This document shows, one piece after another, positions 24,132 to 53,469 of a stretch of DNA of 64,000 bases (positions within the stretch are counted from its first letter, which is position 1; each line of letters begins with the position of its first letter). The notes beneath the pieces are model-generated. The model was given only the letters and a program-made list of their open reading frames with translations, did no database searches and was not told where the DNA came from. The position numbers and the translations under genes are program-made. The DNA is from Pseudomonas sp. BSw22131 (GTDB lineage Bacteria > Pseudomonadota > Gammaproteobacteria > Pseudomonadales > Pseudomonadaceae). The DNA is taken from assembly GCF_026810445.1 (NCBI RefSeq), contig NZ_CP113949.1:1116001-1180000 (forward strand). Reading direction: 5' to 3'.

Positions 24132-25274
24132 ATGCGACGCACGATTGAGGTGGGTTTTTTGTTTTCCACCGACGGGACTTACAAACGCATGGGACAGCAC
24201 GGTCTGGCGGGTGCTCAGCACGCGCTGGCCGAAATCAATCGGCATTGTGACTACGATTTTGAGCTCAAGGCCACGCACATCAATCCGCAGGGTTATCTGC
24301 ATCGGTATAACGAAGGCGCGGTGTCGCTGATGCACAGTGGCATCCGGCATCTGTTCGGCACCACGACGTCGGCCAGTCGCAAGGAGATCATTCCGGACCT
24401 TGAGCAGAACGCCAGTCTGCTGTGGTACGCCTGCCCGTATGAGGGTTTCTAGAGCAGTGAAAACGTGCTCTACCTGGGCGGTTGCCCCAACCAGACGCTG
24501 ATCCCGCTGCTGCGTTATGCGCTGACCACGTTTGGCAAGCGCGCGATGCTGGTGGGCTCGAATTACATCTGGGGCTGGGAAAGCAATCGCATTGCCCGCG
24601 AGGTATTGCAGGCGGCCCATGGCGACGTGGTCGGCGAAAAATACGTGCACATGGGCTCGACCAATTTCAGTGATCTGGTTCAGTTTCTGCTCACCGAGCA
24701 GCCTTCCTTCATCCTCAATAACCTGGTGGGCGAATCGACCTACGCGTTTTTGCATCAGCTGGATGCCGCGTGTGTCGAGCACGACATGGTCCTCCCGGTA
24801 CTCAGTTGCAACCTGACCGAGGCGGAGCTGGGCGAGGTGGGCGAGATGAAAAACCTCAGGTTGTTGTCCTGCGGCCCGTTCTTTGAAGGGGTTGACGATG
24901 CATTCACTGAACGCCAGTTCAGAGAGCACGGGCAGCGGCCCTGCTCGCATTACTACACCGGAATGTATGTTGCGCTGCACCTGTTTGCCGAGGCCCTGCA
25001 CAACGCGGGTAACCAAGAGCCCGAAGATATTTGCCGTTACCTCTACGCCCACGCGCAAGACAGCGTGCTGGGGCGGCTGAAAATTTCCGGGCGCAACAAT
25101 CACAGCAGTCTGCCGTGCCGCATAGCGGAGTTGAGCGAGGGCCGTTTCGTGGTGCTGCACAGCGAAAACCTGGCGTTGCCTGCCGACCCGTATCTGACAT
25201 CGACCGATCTGCGCGAATTTCATCGGCTGCGCGCCGTGGCGCCATTGCCTCACTTGAGGATCGTCAAAAAATGA
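24132..25274 (+). pseudogene. AmiC-like amide sensor gene with an internal amber codon
   Basis: Encodes a type I periplasmic-binding fold protein like AmiC, the cytosolic sensor that holds AmiR inactive until amide binds. It has no signal peptide, as in AmiC. Frame is kept over the full length (about 380 codons), but codon 107 is TAG at 24450–24452, where PYEGFE is expected (GAG to TAG fits one base change). GGAG eight bases upstream supports the ATG at 24132. The stop overlaps the ANTAR gene start (ATGA). Product would be a 106-residue fragment unless the stop is suppressed or is a sequencing error. Confidence 0.8.
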
Positions 25275-43045: not shown

Positions 43046-44022
43046 TTACAGGCGCACATCTCCCGTAGCCAACAGCCGTTTTCGGATCATCCAAAGGTTC
43101 GACGGGGCAAATAGAGTGGGCTATCGCGTGATGTATTTACTTAATCCGCGAAGCCTGACTTTCGTATAACCAAACTGGCGCTTGATCACACGAAACGGAT
43201 GTTCAAGCTTATGCCCGCACTTGAGCTTTCGCGCAATTGATCTTGCGACGCATGCGTGCGATCAAACTGTTCTCGCCGTACTTTTTGTAACTGCCTGGGC
43301 GTGCCGCGATCGACCAGATCATCTGGCGATCCTGATTCTCCGCACGCTCGTCATGCCGGTTCAACCCACATCACCAATGACATAGGTTTTCTTGCCGCGC
43401 AGCAACTGATCGACTTGAGTCACGTACGCCACATTCGCCGCTGTGCCGACTAGGCTATAGACTAACCCCGACTCGGCATTAACGCCGATATGCACGTTCA
43501 TGCCGAAGAAATAGTACTTTCCTTTCATCGTCTGGTGCATTTCGGGATCGCGTTTGCTGTCCTTATTCTTGGTCGAACTGGGCGCATGAATGATCGTCGC
43601 ATCGCCCACCGTACCTTGACGCGGAATCGAACCACGATCACCCAGATAGCCGTTGATGACGTCCATAATCCCGCCTGCCAACTCATGTTTTTAGAGTAAG
43701 CGCCGGAAGTTGAGAATGGTGGCTTCATCGGGAATCCGGTCCAGAATCAAACCTGGGAACTGGCGCAGGATCGTTGTCTCGTACAGCGCTTCTAACACCG
43801 CCGGATGGCTGTAGCCGAACCAGTTTTAAATCAGGTGCATGCACAACACCGCCATTAACGGACAGGCTGCACGGCCACCATCGCCTTTGGGTAATGAGAC
43901 TCGATCATATTGATTAATCCATTCCAGGGTACGATCTGAGTCATCTCAATCAGGAAACGCTATTTACGGGTTTGCTTGCGTTTGCCAGCGTACTCAGCGT
44001 CGGCGAAGGTCATTTGCTTCAT
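43046..44022 (-). pseudogene. IS5-type transposase pseudogene
   Basis: Reading 44022 to 43046 gives a full-length but broken IS5-family transposase. It runs MKQMTFADAEYAGKRKQTRK, a TAG, then IPDEATILNFRRLL, a stop, then DATIIHAPSSTKNKDSKRDPE and NVHIGVNAESGLVYS; the end is HPFRVIKRQFGYTKVR and LSNLWMIRKRLL. There are at least three stop codons and several frameshifts. The largest intact piece is 106 residues (43361–43681). I could not find its terminal inverted repeats. Confidence 0.8.
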
Positions 44023-44454: not shown

Positions 44455-45790
44455 GTGAACAATGAAACCCAAGGACCAGGTGCTCAACCCCTATCCGATA
44501 CTGGACTTGCCTGCCTGGTAATGCCGGGCCGTCGTCACCATCTGGCAGTCTCCGCGGAACAGCTCGTTCACCAGGTTCTGGAAGGTGATCGCGTGTTCAC
44601 TACTCCGCAATTGTTGCTCGCGTCAAAGCAAATCGGCTTGAAAGCGAAGGTTGTAAGTAGCCACGTCGATCGACTGTCCCAGCTTCCGCTGCCGGTCATA
44701 GCGGTCGATGCTGAGGGACGCTTTTTCATCATCGCGCGCCTGTCCGAAGACGAACTGCTGATCCATGATCCCGTGCTCAGCTCCCCGAGAGCTTTCCCCT
44801 CGACTTGCAGGCACGCTGGAGCGGCAGAATTGATTCTGCTGCGCTCCGACGCCGCGTTGACCGTTGAACTGTCGAAGTTCGACTTCACCTTGTTTATTCC
44901 GGCGATCGTAAAATACCGCAAACTTCTCGGTGAAGTATTGTTGGTCTCTTTTGGGCTACAAATCTTTGCGCTGTTGACCCCGCTATTTTTTCAGGGGGTG
45001 ATGAACAAGGTTCTGGTCCACCGCGGGCTTAGCAGCTTGGACGTGATCCCTTTCGGCCTGCTCTGCATCCTGTTGTTCGAAAGCGCTCTCAGTTGTTTGC
45101 GCACATCTCTATTCTCCCACACCGCTAGCCGTCTAGATGTCGAACTCGGCTCAAGGCTGTTTCAACACCTGGTGACCCTACCCTTGGTTTGTTTCCAGCC
45201 AAGCAGGGTCGGTGAGTCGGTAGCGCGGGTGCGCGAACTGGAACAGATCCGTACCTACCTCACCGGCAACAGCATCACCTTGATCTTCGACGTGTTTTTC
45301 TCGGTGGCAATTATCGCCGTGATGTTCGTCTACGGCGGGCGGCTGACGCTGGTAGTGCGGTTGGCGCTGCCGCTGTATTTCTTTCTTTCGTTGCTAATGG
45401 TGACCCCCCCCTTGCGGGTGCGTTTGAACGAAAGCTTTAGTCGGGGCGGGGAGAATCAGTCGTTTCTAGTCGAAACTATCAATGGGATCGACACCCTGAA
45501 ATCCATAGCAGAAGAGCCACAAATCATCCGCAAGTGGGACAACCAGCTCGCCGGTTATGTGGCTGCCGGTTTTCGGATGCAAAACCTATCGGCATTTGCC
45601 AACCAAGCCATGGGTTTGGTTGGCAAATTGGTGACGTCGCCGCGTTATGGCTGGGCGCGCGGTTTGTGATGGACGGGCAACTGTCGGTCGGCCTATTGAT
45701 CGCCTTCAACATACTCGCCCGATCATGCGTCTGGCCGAGGTGTGGAGCTATTTCCAACAAACCGGCCGTGGCCGATAAACGCTCATGAAT
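44455..45790 (+). pseudogene. Type I secretion ABC transporter gene, truncated and frameshifted
   Basis: HlyB/LapB-like. An N-terminal C39-like domain (about residues 15–135; no catalytic Cys seen) is followed by a membrane domain starting FTLFIPAIVKYRKLLGEVLL. The first frame ends at 45669 after GLVGKLVT. The sequence goes on in a second frame (AALWLGARFVMDGQLSVGLLIAFNIL) and a third (MRLAEVWSYFQQTGRG), then stops. The nucleotide-binding domain is missing, so export cannot occur. The GTG at 44455 follows AAAAGGA. No HlyD or TolC partner is present. Confidence 0.8.
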
Positions 45791-45871: not shown

Positions 45872-47115
45872 ATGCAAAAAGTTGATTTATTAATGATCGG
45901 CAGTGGTCCAGCGAACCTATCTATCGCTGTTGCTCTGGAAGAATATGCTTCCACAAACGAAATCGGAAGTTCTGTCATTCTTGAGCAAGAACTCTGCGTA
46001 TCTTGGCAAAAAGGAATGTTATTTCCAGAAGCCCAATCGCAAGTTTCGTTCCTTAAAGATTTGGTAACGCCACGAGACCCGACGAGCCGTTTTAGTTTTC
46101 TCAACTTTCTTCACAAAACCGGGAAACTTGAGAGGTTCATCAATCTTCAAACGTTCAATCCGTATCGACGTGAACTGTCGGACTACTTGCAGTGGGTCGC
46201 GGGTAGCTTGACAAAAACCAAAATCTTATACGGGAGCAAAGTTTCTCGGATTAAACCTGAACTAACTGAGGCCGGAGAAATTAGCGCCTGGCTTGTACGC
46301 ACTGAGAGCGGAGAAAGGTACAAGGTTAAAAAATTGGTGTTTGGTGCTGGCCGCGATATAAACGTTCCAGAAGCCTTTAAAAAATAAGTCGGGACCGAGT
46401 CACGCATAGCTCAAACTATCTGACGTCTCTTCAGGGCATCGATAAGACAACAGTGAACAACATCGCTGTTATTGGTGGCGGGCAAAGTAGTGTGGAAATT
46501 TACCAGAGCTGCCTTGAGCAATTCCCACAAGCCAACGTAAAAATGATTATGCGCTCAATTGGGCTTGTAAACTATGAAGGCAGCAAATTTACAAATACGC
46601 TGTTCAGCAATGACCAAGTCAATACTTTTTTCAATATCGACGCCAGGTCGCGCGCTCAAGTGCTTGCGGAAATGCACACTACCAACTACTCAGGTGTCGC
46701 TCCAGTCAGCTTGGATACCTTATACCGTTTTCATTACTTGCAGGAGTTAAACGGCAGCACCCGTGCCGCGATTTATACGCAATGCAACATTCAAAGCGCC
46801 TATGATGATGGGCTTAGAATCATTTTAACTTGGTTTAATAAGGTACAGAGTAAGACAGAAACAGAGCAGTTTGATTTGGTGTTTTTAGGCACAGGTTATA
46901 AAAACACTATTCCGGATATTTTTAACGAATCAATGCTGATGATGGATCGCACATCCTTCAATGTAAGCAGGCACTACCGCGCTGAACTCCCGTATGTCGG
47001 TGGGGCCTCTCTGCACCTTCAAGGTGTTAACGAATCTACCCATGGCATTGCCGATTCCTTGCTTAGCGTATTGGCGCAACGTTCACAGGAAATAGTTAAT
47101 GACCTATATACCTGA
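45872..47115 (+). pseudogene. Amino-acid N-monooxygenase (SidA/IucD/PvdA type), interrupted by a one-base slip
   Basis: First half 45872–46387 (171 codons): FAD motif MIGSGPANLS (residues about 8–17) and SFLKDLVTPRDPTSRFSF. Second half, in frame from 46384 to 47115: NIAVIGGGQSSVEIY (NADPH motif) and FDLVFLGTGY. Joining through a -1 shift, or one added A, at the A6 run 46379–46384 restores the lost HSSNYL and VTHSS region and gives about 414 residues, normal for the family. These enzymes N-hydroxylate the side-chain amine of lysine or ornithine. In a hydrazine cluster the substrate would be lysine. First gene of the AT-rich operon; AAAGG precedes the ATG. Confidence 0.85.
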
Positions 47116-47135
47116 CTAATAAGGAGTGTGATTGA

Positions 47136-47531
47136 ATGCATTCATTAAAAACATTACACCGTAAAATGTTTAAATTTGAGAACAACTTGTTTTCACACAG
47201 GCTACTACCTTGGCCTGAGCTAAATGCGCCCTTCGAGGGTTCGTGGTGCGTAATTGATGCACATACATCATCGTCTCCTCATTGCCATCATGAGTATGAA
47301 ATTTTTATCGCCTTGAAAGGTAATGCCTTCATTATTTCGGAAGGTAAAAAAACTTTGTTTAAAGCTGGTGACGTTGTGCATTTTCCGCCTAATTTACAGC
47401 ATAGTGTTATCAATGAAAGTGACGAAACATTTGAGATGTTCAGCATCTGGTGGGATGAAGAAATGGCCCGAAAATTTTCTCAACGTCATATGTTTAGCCT
47501 CTCCAATCGCGGAGGTGACAACAATGAGTAA
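47136..47531 (+). CDS. Stand-alone cupin (hydrazine synthetase cupin subunit, predicted)
   Basis: 131 residues with both cupin motifs: HCHHEYE (His49, His51, Glu55 as metal ligands) and GDVVHFPPNLQH (His89). The metal site is complete. In known hydrazine synthetases such as Spb40 and Tri28 a cupin is fused to a MetRS-like domain; there the cupin forms the N–N bond. Here it is separate and overlaps the MetRS-like gene by eight bases. AAGGAG is nine bases before the ATG at 47136. Confidence 0.85.
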   Translation: MHSLKTLHRKMFKFENNLFSHRLLPWPELNAPFEGSWCVIDAHTSSSPHCHHEYEIFIALKGNAFIISEGKKTLFKAGDVVHFPPNLQHSVINESDETFEMFSIWWDEEMARKFSQRHMFSLSNRGGDNNE

Positions 47532-49080
47532 TGTACTTATTATTGCCCCGCCACCGACACCCAATGGCGACTTGCATGTTGGACACATGGCCGGTCCTTA
47601 CCTTGCTGCCGATATCTATGCACGAGCACTTAGATCGCAGGGCAAGCATGTCAATTACGCAACTGGCACTGACGACAGCCAGACATATGTTGTCACCAGC
47701 GCGTTACATTTAGGCATCACGCCAGAAAGCCTTTGCGAAAGCGCAGCCACAGAAATTGAACGCAGCCTGTCGGCTTGGGGTATTAGCTTGGACGGATATG
47801 CTCCATTCGATGATGAATATAAAAAGATGGTTATGGATTTTCTACTTCCCTTACACAATGCAGGAAAGTTTAAACTGAAGTCCGTAAAGTTACCCTTCTC
47901 TGTCAACCGTAAAAAATTCATGGTCGAGTCATTCGTTTCTGGTGAATGCCCAATATGTTTAAGTCAGACCCGCGGCGGGCTTTGCGAAAGTTGTGGCCAT
48001 CCCAACAACTTTGACAACTTACTAAATCCACGGGCCACGCTACCACCCTACGAAGAACTTATCTATAAAGACGCCGAGATTCTTGTCTTGGTCCTCGAGG
48101 ATTATCGGGAACAACTTGAGGCTTTTTATACAGGTAAAAAAGGTAAATGGAGACCTCATATCCTGCAACTCATGAATGAGTTGTTCAGTAAGGCCCTGAT
48201 TGAATTCCCTATTACCTATCCCATCACATGGGGTCTGCCATCACCATTCCCTGGTACAGAAGGGCAGGTTATTAATGCTTGGGCTGAAGGAATGGCTGCA
48301 TCCATGTATTGTAATGCGATAGGAGAAACTCTCCGCGCCGAAACAGATGCATCTTGGCGCGTAGAGAGTGGTAATACTATTGGGTATTTTCTAGGCTTTG
48401 ATAACTCTTACTTCTGGGGTGTCACTCACTTAGCTCTGTTGATGGCGCATGAGGGCAAATACATTTTGCCAGACTTCATCGTGCCAAATGAGTTTTACGA
48501 ATTGGAAAATTCTAAATTCTCAACCAGTCGAAATCATTTGATCTGGGCGCGCGATTTGCTAAAAACCGTGGCTCGCGACTACGCTAGATTTTACCTTTGT
48601 TTGACATGTCCGGAGCACAACAGAAGTAACTTTAGCCTCGCCGCGCTCAACACCGTTATCGAGAGGCAGTTGATCGCGCCTTGGAACAACTTAGTAAATG
48701 CCTACAACAATCACCAATGGTGCATGGTGGAAAACGCTGAACTGAAGCGCGACACCTTAGCTATTCAAGTGATGAAAGATCGCTTACAGCAAGCATGTGA
48801 TATTCAAACATTCAGCATGCGCCGTTTAGCTGACTGGGTGTTAGCTCACATTGACAGAATTTACAGCCTGCTCTTAGAGAAACACTGCACCACCGAATCA
48901 CTCAACGCACAGGTCTTAGTGCTCGTCGAAGGAATGGCGTTGATCATGATTGATTTCAATGACTCATTCAAAGCAAAAAACTACAATAAACTCAATTTGA
49001 ATACCAAACGCACGCTCACACTACCGAAACTCTCGGTATTAACCAATGGCACTCAAATTAGTGAACTTCATGCGTCCTGA
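47524..49080 (+). CDS. Methionyl-tRNA synthetase-like protein (hydrazine synthetase, predicted)
   Basis: 518 residues of the class I aminoacyl-tRNA synthetase fold. HIGH motif is HVGH (18–21). A zinc knuckle has CPIC (142–145) and CESC (154–157). KMSKS reads KFSTS (331–335). The C-terminal 170 residues are helical, in the place of the anticodon domain. A perfect GGAGGTGA site lies six bases before the ATG at 47524. A housekeeping MetRS would not be in such an operon; in hydrazine pathways this domain activates an amino acid and condenses it with N6-hydroxylysine. The amino acid it uses cannot be told. Confidence 0.85.
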   Translation: MSNVLIIAPPPTPNGDLHVGHMAGPYLAADIYARALRSQGKHVNYATGTDDSQTYVVTSALHLGITPESLCESAATEIERSLSAWGISLDGYAPFDDEYKKMVMDFLLPLHNAGKFKLKSVKLPFSVNRKKFMVESFVSGECPICLSQTRGGLCESCGHPNNFDNLLNPRATLPPYEELIYKDAEILVLVLEDYREQLEAFYTGKKGKWRPHILQLMNELFSKALIEFPITYPITWGLPSPFPGTEGQVINAWAEGMAASMYCNAIGETLRAETDASWRVESGNTIGYFLGFDNSYFWGVTHLALLMAHEGKYILPDFIVPNEFYELENSKFSTSRNHLIWARDLLKTVARDYARFYLCLTCPEHNRSNFSLAALNTVIERQLIAPWNNLVNAYNNHQWCMVENAELKRDTLAIQVMKDRLQQACDIQTFSMRRLADWVLAHIDRIYSLLLEKHCTTESLNAQVLVLVEGMALIMIDFNDSFKAKNYNKLNLNTKRTLTLPKLSVLTNGTQISELHAS

Positions 49081-50128
49081 AATTGCGATCGTAGGCGCGG
49101 GGATCTTGGGTGTTATGACAGCACTGGCTTGTGCCCGAAAGGGCGCGGCCGTTGCGATCTATGATACTGAAGACATTCCGAACAAACGTAATCTATCCTT
49201 TGCCGATGCTCGCATGTGGCGGCACGTGCACCAGAATAATCCAGCACTAGAAGCATTAGCCGCGTCGTCGTTAGAGGCTTGGCTGAGACTCCAAAGTTTG
49301 TCTAAATTCGAAGCAGTCAGAAAAACCCAAATAGTTCGTCTGCTGACATCGGCGCAGTGTGAAGTTTTAGGTGATGCCTATGACAACAGCGGCAACACCT
49401 TCGAAATCTTGAGCGCGGACCAATTGTCGATCAAGAAGGCTTACGATATTGATATCACTAGCGAACAACGTTTGTTTGTTGCGAATGATGCCTTATTGAT
49501 TAACGGGAAATTGATTTACTCTTATCTCGTGGATACGCTTAAATCCATGAGTAAAGTCAGTTTTTTTCCTAACACAAAAATTAACGTCGATGCTGATATC
49601 TCTGAATGCTCTATTCAGACTGCGCATGGAAAACGCAACTACTCTGGGATTATTCTTTTAACCGGTCGACCAGGGAAATACGCGTTCTCACAAAGAGAAC
49701 CATGCACACTGAAAAAACATTATCAACTGCATATTGACTTCAACCTTAGCGAGGCCACGACTAATGACGGTCTCCTACCGTTGCTTAATTTTGGTGATCC
49801 GCAAACGACGTGGGCTGTGCCCTCAGTCGATAGAAAAATTCTGAGTGTGAGCGCTAGTAATCTTTTTCTAACAAAGAAAATAAGCGTAGATCAAATTAAT
49901 GAGATGACTGACTATCTTATTCGCAAAATAAAAGCCGAATACACAACGTTCGACGTGCGCGTCTCTGAGTATTTTGAACTACCGGTATCTGCCCGACATA
50001 CGAATACCTATTGGGAAATACGACCAGATCACAACGTAATTTCTATCAACGCTTGCGACGCATCGTTATTTAAGGCCGCGCCAGCAATATCAGAAATCAT
50101 AAGTGACATGATTATAAAGGCTAGATGA
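49070..50128 (+). CDS. DAO-family FAD-dependent oxidase (hydrazine-releasing, predicted)
   Basis: 352 residues. The Rossmann motif EIAIVGAGILGVMTALACAR is at the very N terminus. The overall shape is like glycine/D-amino acid or sarcosine oxidases (DAO family). In the published hydrazine pathways such an oxidase cleaves the lysine–hydrazine adduct to free the hydrazino acid. It overlaps the MetRS-like gene by 11 bases. A start eight codons earlier (49046) is possible; I chose 49070 because it gives the normal distance to the FAD motif. Confidence 0.82.
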   Translation: MRPEIAIVGAGILGVMTALACARKGAAVAIYDTEDIPNKRNLSFADARMWRHVHQNNPALEALAASSLEAWLRLQSLSKFEAVRKTQIVRLLTSAQCEVLGDAYDNSGNTFEILSADQLSIKKAYDIDITSEQRLFVANDALLINGKLIYSYLVDTLKSMSKVSFFPNTKINVDADISECSIQTAHGKRNYSGIILLTGRPGKYAFSQREPCTLKKHYQLHIDFNLSEATTNDGLLPLLNFGDPQTTWAVPSVDRKILSVSASNLFLTKKISVDQINEMTDYLIRKIKAEYTTFDVRVSEYFELPVSARHTNTYWEIRPDHNVISINACDASLFKAAPAISEIISDMIIKAR

Positions 50129-50129
50129 A

Positions 50130-51344
50130 ATGAGTAGTGAGATCCTTGTAAATCAACAGACACTCCCCGCGCGAGATAATAATGAGCGTTATCTACTTCT
50201 CGCTTCATTGATCTCTACTCTGGGTAGCGGTGTTCTTATTATTGCCAATGCGCTTATTATTTCGCAAATCATGGGAACCGCCAAAGCTGTAGGTTTTCTA
50301 TTTATACTAGTGGCTCTCCCACAAGCATTTTTCTCGCTTTTATTCGGAAAAATTTCAGACACCTACGATCGCAAAAAAATTTGTATCGTTACAAATATTT
50401 TAAATGCGGTTATTGTGATTAGCATTTTGGTGGGCATCGCCTTTTTTGATGACCCGTCAATGACCGTATATGTCGGTAGCTTTATGCTGTCCTTAACAAC
50501 CGCAATGTTTTTCCCGGCAAACAACGCTATTATCAAAGACGCCATCACTAAAACCCGAATGGCCATTTTTAACTCGAAATTAGAAATGTCAACACAGATC
50601 GGTACTTTGACATCGGTTGCTATTGGTGGATTTCTGATTCAGTACTCAGGCGTGAATTTTGTATTTGTGTTGAATGCAATAACCTTCTTATGTAGCGCTT
50701 TTTTATTCAAACTAATCAACATCAACCGCCAATCAACAACGCTGACGGACACTAGCTCAAATGCTGACGCCGATCTGGAGAAAGGAGATGTCCAGATTAG
50801 GAAGCCTTGGTTAATCCTGCTATATGGTATCGGCAACATTATTATAACCGTCAGCAATATGCTCTTGGTTATACTCGTCACCAAACATTACAGCGCGGGA
50901 GCCAGCGTACTTGGTATTGTCGATGCTTTGGCCGGTGTTGGTGTATTCGTTGCTGCTGCACTGACGCCCGTTTTACAAAAACGCTATTCACTGTTATCAA
51001 TAGTAATTATAGGCTATATCGGAAACGCCTTATTTATTGCCTTGCAACCGCAATTTAATATTATGTGGCTTATCGTGTTTTTCCCTTTAGGCGCACTGTC
51101 CTTTGGCATCGCCAGAATTTCCTGTCGAACACTAATGTTTAACTCAATTTCCTCACAATACACTGGCCGCTTTTTTGGAATGAGCAACGCGCTTGGCCTG
51201 GCATCATCGGTTGTGTTGATTTACGTCATCGGCAGCTTGGTAGACACATTCGATGTGATAGCAGGATACGTGGCATTAGCAGCCACCGTTGTTGCCCTGA
51301 CATCACTTGCTTCATTATTCGTTATCAAAGGGCCAACGAAATGA
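50130..51344 (+). CDS. MFS exporter
   Basis: 404 residues with about 12 membrane spans. Motif A is present as FGKISDTYDRKK between spans 2 and 3. It most resembles drug or siderophore exporters of the major facilitator family. In the operon it probably exports the product or protects the producer. Starts one base after the preceding stop (TGAAATG). No substrate prediction. Confidence 0.85.
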   Translation: MSSEILVNQQTLPARDNNERYLLLASLISTLGSGVLIIANALIISQIMGTAKAVGFLFILVALPQAFFSLLFGKISDTYDRKKICIVTNILNAVIVISILVGIAFFDDPSMTVYVGSFMLSLTTAMFFPANNAIIKDAITKTRMAIFNSKLEMSTQIGTLTSVAIGGFLIQYSGVNFVFVLNAITFLCSAFLFKLININRQSTTLTDTSSNADADLEKGDVQIRKPWLILLYGIGNIIITVSNMLLVILVTKHYSAGASVLGIVDALAGVGVFVAAALTPVLQKRYSLLSIVIIGYIGNALFIALQPQFNIMWLIVFFPLGALSFGIARISCRTLMFNSISSQYTGRFFGMSNALGLASSVVLIYVIGSLVDTFDVIAGYVALAATVVALTSLASLFVIKGPTK

Positions 51345-52582
51345 AATTGTTAGCCATCGAAGTAGGGCAATTTGGTGATTATTACAACTCGCGATATCAA
51401 CAGATTGAAAACTATGGTGTAGATTTATATGTTTTTTCCGGTGTCGCTGACTTCGACCATTGGAAAGAGGGAAAATTTTTTGTTGCCAACACCATGGACA
51501 CCACCGATTTAACCAAACGAGCCATAGAGATTAATCAGGAACAAAAATTCGATGGTGTTTTCACGCTTGCCGAGAACAGCGTTATCGCTACTGCCATTAT
51601 AGCGACCGCGCTAGGGCTGCCATCAATCACGGTGAATGCAGCGGCGAACAGCCGAAATAAAATATTCATGCGAAACGCGCACAGGACCCACAATGCCCCA
51701 CATCCAGCATTTGCGCTTACGAACACGATTGATGAAGCACGCAAAGCCGCCGACTCAATAGGCTTTCCCGTCATTCTCAAACCCACACTTGGTTCCGGTA
51801 GTCAGTTTGTGTATAAAATCAATAATCATGAAGAACTCAACGACGCATTCCCAACGGCGTTCAAAGGTATCAACGCGATGAGTCAGTTTTTGAAGGAAGG
51901 CATCACGAGTCTTTTAGGCCCTAACAGTTTGCTTGTAGAGTCGTACCTTGATGGTCGGGAATTTCTGATTGAAGCTTTTACTTGGGACGGTGAAACTGTG
52001 CTTGGCTCTATCGTTGATAGAGTTACATTGGAAGGTAATTCCTTTGATGACGATGTGCATCACGCGCCCACCGACCTGTGCCCGCTTGATATTGAAAGGG
52101 TGAGAGCCGCGGTGCATGCTGGCGCAGTCGCTCAAGGCTTGACGCGGAGTGCTATGCACGCAGAAATTCGCTTTCATCAGAATAAGCCTTATATAATCGA
52201 AATCGCCGCTCGCTTGGGTGGCGGCGGCCTTGATTTTATGTCTCGATTATCATCTGGTTATTGCCCAGTCAAATCGGCAATAGATATTGCAATGGGAGTC
52301 AAACCTAACCATGGTTTTTATAGTCCCACAGGTTTGGATACATTCGCTTTATGTTTGATTTCCGGTCCAGGCACAATCACCGATATTTTGGTGCCTGCGA
52401 CCATTACAAATGACCCAGCTGTATTTATGTTGAAAATCACGGCTCAGCCTGGCACTTTAATTAAAAGGCCTCCTTTTGGAAATGACATCGTCGGTTTCCT
52501 TGGAGTATCGGGAAGCGTACGTAAAGAGACCGAATTTAAAGCGTTAAGCTACAGTAATAAAATAAAAATATCGATTAAATGA
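51341..52582 (+). CDS. ATP-grasp carboxylate–amine ligase
   Basis: 413 residues. A pre-ATP-grasp domain is followed by the ATP-grasp fold: FPVILKPTLGSGSQFVY (about residues 140–156) and EIRFHQNKPYIIEIAARLGGGG with metal-binding Glu (about 270–290). Members such as BacD join two amino acids by acyl phosphate. Here it would couple the hydrazino acid to an amino acid. It starts within the MFS stop (ATGA overlap, 4 bp). Confidence 0.85.
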   Translation: MKLLAIEVGQFGDYYNSRYQQIENYGVDLYVFSGVADFDHWKEGKFFVANTMDTTDLTKRAIEINQEQKFDGVFTLAENSVIATAIIATALGLPSITVNAAANSRNKIFMRNAHRTHNAPHPAFALTNTIDEARKAADSIGFPVILKPTLGSGSQFVYKINNHEELNDAFPTAFKGINAMSQFLKEGITSLLGPNSLLVESYLDGREFLIEAFTWDGETVLGSIVDRVTLEGNSFDDDVHHAPTDLCPLDIERVRAAVHAGAVAQGLTRSAMHAEIRFHQNKPYIIEIAARLGGGGLDFMSRLSSGYCPVKSAIDIAMGVKPNHGFYSPTGLDTFALCLISGPGTITDILVPATITNDPAVFMLKITAQPGTLIKRPPFGNDIVGFLGVSGSVRKETEFKALSYSNKIKISIK

Positions 52583-53469
52583 AAAAAATCGGATTGGCTA
52601 TTGCACTCGATGACAGTGCAACCTACCACACTCAGACTTTTATCGAGGCTATCGCGTATAGCCTCGATAATTTTCCTGCCCTCAATTCATATATGTATAG
52701 AACTGTGAGCGACCAAAAATCCCGATCGGGGGGCGCCAACTCAGCGAAGGGATTGATCGATTGGGGCGCGGACATCGTCATAGGGCACTTTTCCAGTATA
52801 GCTGCGATTTCTGCTATGCCGTATTATGCCGCAGCCCATATGCCGGTGATCCTGCCTGCAGCCACTTCTTGCCAACTTGACCTGTTGCCTGCTAATCAAC
52901 AATACCTTACCTATAAGTATCAAAACAACAACAAAGCGCTTGTGCAATACTGTGTGTTTGATTGTATTGCTAAACGAGGGAGCGGAAACATAATTGTCAT
53001 TGCCCAAAATAATGAATACGGCAAAACGCTGTCAAGACTAATACCTTTGTTTAGGGGGGTAATTCTAACAGACACAGTTCCAGCACATTTTGGCAGAAGT
53101 GATACATATGTTATATTTGGCTATGATGATTTTGCTAGGAATATTATTAAAAGACTTTCTAGTGTGCCCGTTTATCGTATAGTTCTCATCGACGACTCCG
53201 ATTGTTCTGATGTTCATAAAGCACTTATTGTTAAGCCGCATCGACTGTCCCGAGTTAAAGCCGTGTTTAACATTCCTAAGCATGGAAGGCCTTCACCCTA
53301 CTGGAATGAAACATTATTGGCACTCGCACTGGCGGATTCTATGCTGAGGACGTCCAATGAGAAAATCGCTCATCTTGGAACATTTGAGACGTACCTTGCA
53401 CCGCAGAGTTTCGATAGTAATAATCGCTACGATGGAAACACACTGGTGACAGAGGATATATATTACTGA
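52579..53469 (+). CDS. Type I periplasmic-binding-fold protein without signal peptide
   Basis: 296 residues related to the LivJ/AmiC ligand-binding family: LIDWGADIVIGHFSS and MPVILPAATS, and NEYGKTLSRL. The N terminus MKKIGLAIALDDSATYH has no hydrophobic signal and looks cytosolic, like AmiC. It overlaps the ATP-grasp stop by four bases (ATGA). It could sense or sequester the product or a precursor. Last gene of the operon; no transcription terminator is obvious. Confidence 0.75.
   Translation: MKKIGLAIALDDSATYHTQTFIEAIAYSLDNFPALNSYMYRTVSDQKSRSGGANSAKGLIDWGADIVIGHFSSIAAISAMPYYAAAHMPVILPAATSCQLDLLPANQQYLTYKYQNNNKALVQYCVFDCIAKRGSGNIIVIAQNNEYGKTLSRLIPLFRGVILTDTVPAHFGRSDTYVIFGYDDFARNIIKRLSSVPVYRIVLIDDSDCSDVHKALIVKPHRLSRVKAVFNIPKHGRPSPYWNETLLALALADSMLRTSNEKIAHLGTFETYLAPQSFDSNNRYDGNTLVTEDIYY

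What the first reader, a model, noticed from the sequence alone, without database searches (positions are those of the whole stretch)
45872..53469. Probable new hydrazine (N–N bond) biosynthesis cluster with split cupin and MetRS subunits
One AT-rich plus-strand operon carries, in order, an amino-acid N-monooxygenase, a cupin, a MetRS-like enzyme, a DAO-type FAD oxidase, an MFS exporter, an ATP-grasp ligase and a binding-fold protein. The first four match the known route (lysine N6-hydroxylation; condensation with an amino acid by a cupin–MetRS hydrazine synthetase; oxidative release of a hydrazino acid) of s56-p1, triacsin and formycin/pyrazofurin producers. Those are actinomycetes, and the synthetase there is one fused protein. 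Here it is two genes in a Pseudomonas island, and an ATP-grasp ligase suggests a hydrazino-acid peptide as product. I do not recall a described Pseudomonas member.
Basis: partly seen in the sequence, partly recalled or inferred. Interest (0 to 1): 0.95.

Follow-up and report, generated by a model that had tools for sequence, protein, structure and literature searches.

The report
Mobile hydrazine operon with flytrap partner
Seven neighbouring bacterial genes likely make a small molecule with a rare nitrogen–nitrogen bond; the same seven occur on Pantoea plasmids, and one of them encodes a binding protein predicted to stay inside the cell and to hold an intermediate, although the first gene of the set is broken in this genome's sequence.

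Summary
The operon is real (45872-53469), with one correction: the N-monooxygenase (NMO) is not intact. It is two ORFs in different frames, broken at an A-run near 46379-46384; intact copies exist in relatives. The cupin and MetRS-like genes look like a split hydrazine synthetase of the PyrN/RHS1 kind: metal ligands H49/H51/E55/H89 keep PyrN's spacing, the ATP-motif lysine is present, the methionine-pocket stretches differ from true MetRS, and no anticodon domain is detectable. Eight of the 23 closest proteins are cupin-MetRS fusions.

Two novelty arguments fail: split pairs and a Pseudomonas member (Por11) are published.

What is new lies elsewhere. Six or seven of these genes recur in order in Pantoea, Klebsiella, Serratia and Deinococcus, each with the same ATP-grasp ligase. 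The "binding-fold protein" is a LivJ-type amino-acid flytrap with no visible signal peptide. Its profile picked out 20 new loci among 298 same-genus genomes; 20 of 20 sit beside cupin, MetRS, oxidase and NMO genes, against 0 of 20 (cupin, MetRS, NMO) for ordinary binding proteins. The same genome holds a second hydrazine cluster.

New variant of a known kind. Product, substrates and flytrap role are inferred.

The parts
45872..46387 (+). N-monooxygenase, first half (FAD-binding part); frame ends early at an A-run
   Evidence: PF13434 positions 2-166, 5.1e-46; 66% identical to Pantoea AR24 protein residues 1-171
46453..47115 (+). N-monooxygenase, second half, in another frame
   Evidence: PF13434 positions 189-338, 4.6e-32; 58% identical to Pantoea AR24 residues 171-412
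47136..47531 (+). Standalone cupin, proposed N-N-bond-forming subunit
   Evidence: Cupin_2 6.6e-15; RHS1 structure 5uqp 1.5e-6, 4rd7 2.3e-40; H49/H51/E55/H89
47524..49080 (+). Standalone MetRS-like protein, proposed adenylating and ester-forming subunit
   Evidence: tRNA-synt_1g 9.3e-68; HVGH and KFSTS motifs; no anticodon domain at E<=10; altered pocket stretches
49070..50128 (+). DAO-type FAD oxidase, proposed to release the hydrazino acid
   Evidence: PF01266 2.9e-13; sarcosine oxidase structures 8.8e-7
50130..51344 (+). MFS transporter, proposed exporter
   Evidence: MFS_1 1.5e-29
51341..52582 (+). ATP-grasp ligase of the L-amino-acid-ligase kind
   Evidence: ATP-grasp_4 4.5e-25 and LAL_C2 2.3e-7; BL00235 structure 3vot 2.9e-22; 54-68% identical in Pantoea, Klebsiella, Serratia, Deinococcus
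52579..53469 (+). LivJ-type flytrap (binding-fold) protein without visible signal peptide
   Evidence: Peripla_BP_6 3.2e-6, below the curated cut-off; model pLDDT 89.5; Foldseek 1z15 1.4e-12; association with hydrazine genes

Best explanation
The operon encodes a split cupin/MetRS-like pair that is likely a hydrazine synthetase, together with a broken N-monooxygenase, a DAO-type oxidase, an MFS transporter, an ATP-grasp ligase and a protein predicted to have the LivJ fold. Proposed route, by analogy with PyrN and Spb38-40: the N-monooxygenase would hydroxylate the side-chain amine of lysine or ornithine (inferred; gene not intact here). The MetRS-like protein would adenylate a second, unidentified amino acid and pass it to the N-hydroxyl group as an ester (inferred from family chemistry and conserved motifs). 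The zinc cupin would rearrange that ester into an N-N bond (inferred; ligand spacing shown). The oxidase would cleave the product to a free hydrazino acid (inferred). The ATP-grasp ligase would join it to another amino acid, and the MFS protein would export the result (inferred). The flytrap protein most likely binds an amino-acid-like intermediate, probably the reactive hydrazino acid, in the cytoplasm (inferred from fold, N-lobe motif and lack of a visible signal peptide); its tie to hydrazine gene sets is shown. As sequenced, this strain probably cannot start the pathway unless the frame break is an assembly error or another N-hydroxylase of the genome stands in (untested).
For: Cupin: H49-x-H51-xxx-E55 and H89 have the same spacing as PyrN H50/H52/E56/H90; match to RHS1 structure 5uqp 1.5e-6. 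MetRS-like: HVGH and KFSTS kept; pocket stretches differ from the same genome's true MetRS; no anticodon or tRNA-binding domain where the true MetRS shows both. 8 of the 23 closest proteins (60% identity or more, own included) carry a cupin domain; cupin first, with H49, H51, E55 and H89 invariant in nine fused rows. NMO beside the pair in the relatives read. Flytrap: 20 of 20 new loci beside cupin, MetRS, DAO and NMO, against 0 of 20 for cupin, MetRS or NMO at ordinary binding-protein loci; 3 of 3 places in an order survey of 244 genomes. LivJ fold. ATP-grasp: 54-68% identical in the Pantoea, Klebsiella, Serratia and Deinococcus clusters.
Against: The first enzyme is broken in the window, and also, by a stop, in Pantoea CFBP8756; the NMO of the related G235 locus L075 also falls in two frames. 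The oxidase is poorly kept: 37% to Pantoea where MetRS, MFS and ATP-grasp keep 62-67%, and it shows no blastp hit at 1e-3 to the oxidases of the second cluster or of G190. The flytrap is absent from the fetched stretches of seven other hydrazine-type loci, including Streptomyces BHT-5-2, which has oxidase and ATP-grasp. The 20 new flytrap loci are all of one cluster type, so they are few independent origins. No activity, substrate, metal or ligand was tested; absence of a signal peptide was judged by eye.
Confidence: 0.72

Rival explanations
1. In this strain the operon is an inactive, decaying remnant: the NMO break is real and no product is made, although the gene family is a hydrazine pathway elsewhere.
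For: Two frames at the NMO; a different break in Pantoea CFBP8756; damaged copies in Rahnella and K. variicola KV1; a truncated-looking ABC gene and a transposase remnant upstream.
Against: The other six genes are open, and the NMO halves are about as conserved towards Pantoea (66% and 59%) as the intact MetRS and ATP-grasp (62% and 67%), so any break is recent or an artefact.
Confidence: 0.45
2. The NMO break is a sequencing or assembly error at an A-run and the operon is intact.
For: The break lies in a run of A, where some sequencing methods err (recalled); protein conservation is not relaxed.
Against: The genome is a single 100% complete contig, and the same gene is broken elsewhere in ways that are not this one.
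Confidence: 0.4
3. The flytrap protein is a ligand sensor or regulator (AmiC-like) and not a pathway component.
For: Cytoplasmic relatives of this fold can act as regulators (AmiC, recalled); it is encoded last in the window operon.
Against: No partner regulator gene is seen in the operon; in the second cluster it overlaps the oxidase gene and is followed by enzyme genes.
Confidence: 0.22
4. The cupin and MetRS-like pair make an amino-acyl ester or amide of the N-hydroxy amino acid and no N-N bond.
For: In PyrN the MetRS-like part alone gives an ester that turns into an amide (PMC8664883).
Against: All four PyrN metal positions are kept, including the essential Glu, and cupin-MetRS fusions exist among the closest relatives.
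Confidence: 0.07

Closest known systems
PyrN (pyrazomycin) and RHS1 with its standalone MetRS-like partner (Rhodococcus jostii RHA1)
   Same: Cupin plus MetRS-like, same metal-ligand spacing, ATP-motif lysine; the standalone arrangement is known (PMC8664883)
   Different: Partner genes: DAO-type oxidase, ATP-grasp and flytrap here, against a saccharopine-dehydrogenase-type gene (pyrL) there; second substrate here unknown
Spb38/Spb39/Spb40 of s56-p1
   Same: NMO, oxidase and cupin-MetRS; s56-p1 is a dipeptide with a hydrazone unit (PMC10445470 passages)
   Different: Spb40 is fused; flytrap and ATP-grasp are not mentioned in the passages read; no sequence comparison was possible
Por9/Por11 of Pseudomonas orientalis
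   Same: Hydrazine synthetase and N-hydroxylase in a Pseudomonas, product unknown (PMC11705231 passages)
L-amino acid ligases BL00235 and BacD
   Same: ATP-grasp and LAL_C2 domains; structure match 3vot 2.9e-22
   Different: Far below the NCBIfam cut-off for BacD (43.6 of 850 bits); substrate unknown
LivJ/LIVBP periplasmic amino-acid-binding proteins
   Same: Fold (1z15 1.4e-12) and N-lobe motif
   Different: No visible signal peptide, 296 aa, no transporter permease genes in the operon, tied to hydrazine genes

Membership tests
Cupin/MetRS-like hydrazine synthetases | Four cupin metal positions with PyrN spacing | tested here: met
   H49, H51, E55, H89
Cupin/MetRS-like hydrazine synthetases | MetRS-like catalytic domain with ATP motifs | tested here: met
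   tRNA-synt_1g 9.3e-68; HVGH at 18, KFSTS at 331
Cupin/MetRS-like hydrazine synthetases | No anticodon/tRNA-binding domain (tRNA-independent) | tested here: met
   None at E<=10; the true MetRS of the genome shows PF19303 and PF01588. Independence of tRNA itself was not tested
Cupin/MetRS-like hydrazine synthetases | Adjacent flavin N-hydroxylase gene | tested here: inconclusive
   Present but broken in two frames in the window; intact in L004, L006, L010, L017
Cupin/MetRS-like hydrazine synthetases | Closest sequence match to a characterised member | tested here: inconclusive
   Cupin matches RHS1 5uqp at 1.5e-6 but two other cupin structures better; Spb40, Tri28, PyrN and Por11 sequences were not held
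Cupin/MetRS-like hydrazine synthetases | N-N bond formation by the pair | not testable with these tools
   Needs an enzyme assay
True methionyl-tRNA synthetase | Methionine pocket and anticodon domain | tested here: not met
   Pocket stretches differ; no anticodon domain
L-amino acid ligase (LAL) | ATP-grasp plus LAL_C2 domains over Pfam cut-offs | tested here: met
   88.6 of 27 bits and 31.4 of 29.4 bits
L-amino acid ligase (LAL) | Peptide-bond formation between amino acids | not testable with these tools
   Needs an enzyme assay
ABC-transporter periplasmic binding protein | Signal peptide and neighbouring ABC permease genes | tested here: not met
   Starts at its first strand, by eye, no predictor run; no permease or ATPase in the operon
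Type I (LivJ-like) binding-protein fold | Two-lobe fold and N-lobe amino-acid motif | tested here: met

The most novel reading that the evidence does not exclude
A new kind of pathway component: a nutrient-uptake flytrap moved from the periplasm into the cytoplasm, where it holds the reactive hydrazine amino acid released by the oxidase, shields the cell's own enzymes from it and hands it to the ATP-grasp ligase. It is a dedicated member of at least four different hydrazine cluster architectures, on plasmids and chromosomes and in two phyla, and works as a genome-mining tag for hydrazine metabolites.
Probability: 0.35. Interest if true: 0.82.

Novelty: new variant of a known kind. Interest (0 to 1): 0.64.

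Why it matters
Natural products with N-N bonds are few and hard to find by activity. This gives a compact operon family with its own ligase, shared by Pantoea, Klebsiella, Serratia, Deinococcus and this genome, with no product known to me. It also gives a very specific marker gene: the flytrap profile found 20 further hydrazine clusters among 298 genomes of one genus without any known hydrazine enzyme as query. If the flytrap holds the intermediate, it would show how cells handle a toxic hydrazine in the cytoplasm, which purified protein can test directly.

Tried and rejected
True MetRS: rejected. Known Pantoea antibiotics: passages of PMC11350110, PMC7744662 and PMC4010436, searched for cupin, tRNA, monooxygenase and ATP-grasp words, gave no matching cluster; supplementary files were not read. 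Phosphonate chemistry, suggested by a PEP_mutase-family gene in Serratia H1w and an isocitrate lyase/PEP mutase family gene in D. ficus: set aside because the Serratia protein lacks, by eye, the EDKxxxxxNS motif that I recall for true PEP mutases; no such gene is among the window operon's Pfam results. Wide surveys with the window MetRS at E<=1e-60: 1 of 369 class genomes and 1 of 398 phylum genomes, both the own genome; only the top few candidates of a genome are scored, so distant types are missed. Megablast of the cluster against E. coli genomes: no match. Substrate choice from the MetRS pocket: given up, since no reference sequence of known specificity was held. Structure of the cupin-MetRS complex: not possible with a single-chain tool; the second structure job and the third protein search were left unused.

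Print: a flytrap protein as part of hydrazine clusters was not seen in the listings or passages. The subscription papers most likely to hold it (Matsuda 2022 and 2024, seen only as citations) are not in the library, so this is weak evidence of absence.
Full report
Observation. The operon lies at 45872-53469 on the plus strand. Pfam finds, in order, PF13434 in two pieces, Cupin_2, tRNA-synt_1g, DAO, MFS_1, ATP-grasp_4 with LAL_C2, and a weak Peripla_BP_6 below its cut-off. From the second NMO piece onward the gaps are -11 to +20 bp. G+C is 0.440 against 0.586 and 0.572 on the two sides. The one error in the description is the N-monooxygenase: two ORFs in different frames, broken at an A-run. 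The halves align to residues 1-171 and 171-412 of the 414-residue Pantoea AR24 protein. In Pantoea CFBP8756 the same gene has an early in-frame stop; L004, L006, L010 and L017 have it intact. A second CFBP8756-like plasmid (NZ_CP143523) also lists no monooxygenase, but I did not read its sequence. Upstream lie a C39 peptidase-ABC ORF in whose 404 residues no ATPase domain was found (44455-45669) and a transposase piece (43364-43681).

The cupin/MetRS pair. PyrN's MetRS-like domain makes an amino-acyl ester of N6-hydroxy-lysine, its zinc cupin rearranges that to an N-N bond, tRNA is not needed, and the two parts can be separate proteins, as with RHS1 (PMC8664883: abstract, parts 1 and 2 of 6 of the main section, and passages). 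The window cupin keeps all four PyrN metal positions at the same spacing and matches RHS1's structure 5uqp at 1.5e-6; two cupins of no stated function match better (4rd7 2.3e-40, 4mv2 2.2e-25). The MetRS-like protein keeps HVGH and KFSTS, but its pocket stretches differ from the true MetRS of the same genome, e.g. VINAWAEGMAASMYC against YFYVWLDAPIGYMAS, and it lacks the anticodon and tRNA-binding domains that the true enzyme shows. A protein search gave 1754 relatives at E<=1e-20, of which the best 120 were listed; of the 23 with 60% identity or more (own included) eight carry a cupin domain. In a 30-row tree these eight form two starred clades inside the otherwise split proteobacterial group; the branches that keep the two apart have only moderate support (83-92% bootstrap), and a third, distant fusion (G190 type) exists. 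So the genes have probably been joined or parted more than once, which speaks for one working unit.

What is not new. The review PMC11705231 (passages) lists split pairs (Dpn5-Dpn6, Bac1-Bac2, Col1-Col2, Ral1-Ral2, Afn8 and Afn9, and others) and Pseudomonas members (Por11; P. fluorescens A0A423LFS6). A split synthetase in a Pseudomonas is not novel in itself.

Distribution. Close relatives are rare in the genus: the MetRS query at E<=1e-60 hits 6 of 298 genomes including the own one, best other identity 41% (at most five candidates a genome were scored). Syntenic relatives are elsewhere. Plasmids of Pantoea agglomerans AR24 and P. ananatis OC5a have all seven genes plus a GNAT acetyltransferase gene; P. 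agglomerans CFBP8756 has the same with the broken NMO; Klebsiella variicola BM374-1 has the seven across its record's origin. Serratia sp. H1w lacks the MFS gene there. Deinococcus ficus pDFI1 has NMO, cupin, MetRS, oxidase, ATP-grasp and flytrap in this order (to the window 53% MetRS, 54% ATP-grasp, 27% flytrap). Streptomyces BHT-5-2 has NMO, cupin, MetRS, oxidase, MFS and ATP-grasp, with no flytrap in the 19 kb read. The ATP-grasp protein occurs at E<=1e-60 in 8 of 72,556 plasmid records and the flytrap at E<=1e-8 in 6. Serratia and Deinococcus also share two further ATP-grasp ligases (50% and 45%) and a PEP_mutase-family protein (34%), so the window form looks like a compact version of a larger cluster family that spans phyla. 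Rahnella (L008) and K. variicola KV1 (L009) hold damaged pieces.

The flytrap as marker. The window protein, searched in 244 genomes of the order at E<=1e-6, gave three places in two genomes: this operon, a second cluster of the same genome (L022: cupin, MetRS, DAO, flytrap, NMO, a PLP-enzyme-family gene, an ornithine-cyclodeaminase-family gene, an FAD-NAD protein) and G1159 (L031: NMO, aminotransferase-like, cupin, MetRS, DAO, flytrap). A 21-row profile matched 297 of 298 genomes of the genus at E<=1e-5, because ordinary binding proteins score too, but the list has a gap: 25 places in 24 genomes at E<=6.6e-35, then nothing until 2.5e-19. Five of the 25 were known before, and four of those five were rows of the profile. 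The other 20 were fetched with about 8 kb on each side: 20 of 20 have cupin, MetRS, DAO and NMO contiguous with the flytrap, and all 20 are of the second-cluster type; in L075 the NMO falls in two frames. Control: 20 of the 24 next-listed ordinary binding-protein places: 0 of 20 have cupin, MetRS or NMO; 16 of 20 show a 22-24% oxidase hit and one an aminotransferase hit. The 20 positives share one cluster type and so count as few origins. Across types the flytrap is in four architectures: the window type (with Deinococcus), the second-cluster type, the G1159 type, and the G190/G127/G162 type with a fused synthetase. It is absent from the fetched stretches of seven other hydrazine-type loci (L018-L021, L023, L024, L112). 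In the loci read, flytrap implies hydrazine genes, not the reverse.

Mechanism and limits. The route in Best explanation is family chemistry plus anatomy. Shown: gene content, motifs, fusions, synteny, the flytrap association. Inferred: both substrates, the cleavage product, the ligation, export, and the flytrap's role. The nearest solved relative of the second NMO half is an ornithine hydroxylase (3s5w, 5.1e-24), ahead of lysine enzymes (1.5e-16 and 2e-16), so lysine should not be assumed. The oxidase is the least conserved enzyme (37% to Pantoea).

Scores. The enzyme family is known, so 0.95 is too high. The operon family across phyla, its own ligase and above all the flytrap partner raise it well above routine: 0.64.

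Noticed in passing
G000:C1 about 77.8-87.2 kb (L022:7795-17205), same genome, outside the window: A second hydrazine-type cluster: cupin, MetRS, DAO, flytrap, NMO, PLP-enzyme-family and ornithine-cyclodeaminase-family genes (SbnA/SbnB-like, suggesting a diaminopropionate supply) and a 609-aa FAD-NAD protein; the same set is in 20 other loci of 298 same-genus genomes.
   Followed up: partly
L017:14137-18552 (Serratia sp. H1w): An Ada-type alkylation-repair protein, a PEP_mutase-family protein and two more ATP-grasp ligases follow the cluster; a repair gene there might fit a DNA-alkylating product.
   Followed up: partly
L111:666-12581 (Deinococcus ficus pDFI1): Six-gene version of the cluster in another phylum, flanked by two divergent ATP-grasp genes, an isocitrate lyase/PEP mutase family gene and a carboxypeptidase M32 gene.
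   Followed up: partly
L005:5860-7095 (Pantoea CFBP8756) and L075:9323-10626 (G235): The N-monooxygenase is broken by an in-frame stop in the first and falls in two frames in the second, while neighbouring genes look intact; with the window that makes three separate breaks in the first enzyme.
   Followed up: no
L008:6995-9279 (Rahnella) and L009:7001-8032 (K. variicola KV1): Damaged copies: in Rahnella a MetRS first part runs into an ATP-grasp last part and the flytrap is in pieces; in KV1 only a MetRS piece remains.
   Followed up: no
window 24141-25136: An ordinary Peripla_BP_6 gene with one in-frame TAG.
   Followed up: no
window 44455-45669: C39 peptidase-ABC transporter ORF with membrane region but no ATPase domain found in it, just upstream of the operon.
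   Followed up: no
L023 and L024 (G029, G026): Another hydrazine-type NMO-cupin-MetRS set without flytrap; in L024 it lies beside a large NRPS-like ORF and a decarboxylase-like ORF (named by eye).
   Followed up: no
L004:13617-14057 and L006:13513-13953 (Pantoea): A GNAT acetyltransferase gene follows the flytrap gene and a NIPSNAP family gene lies divergent upstream (also in Klebsiella L010); possible self-protection, untested.
   Followed up: no
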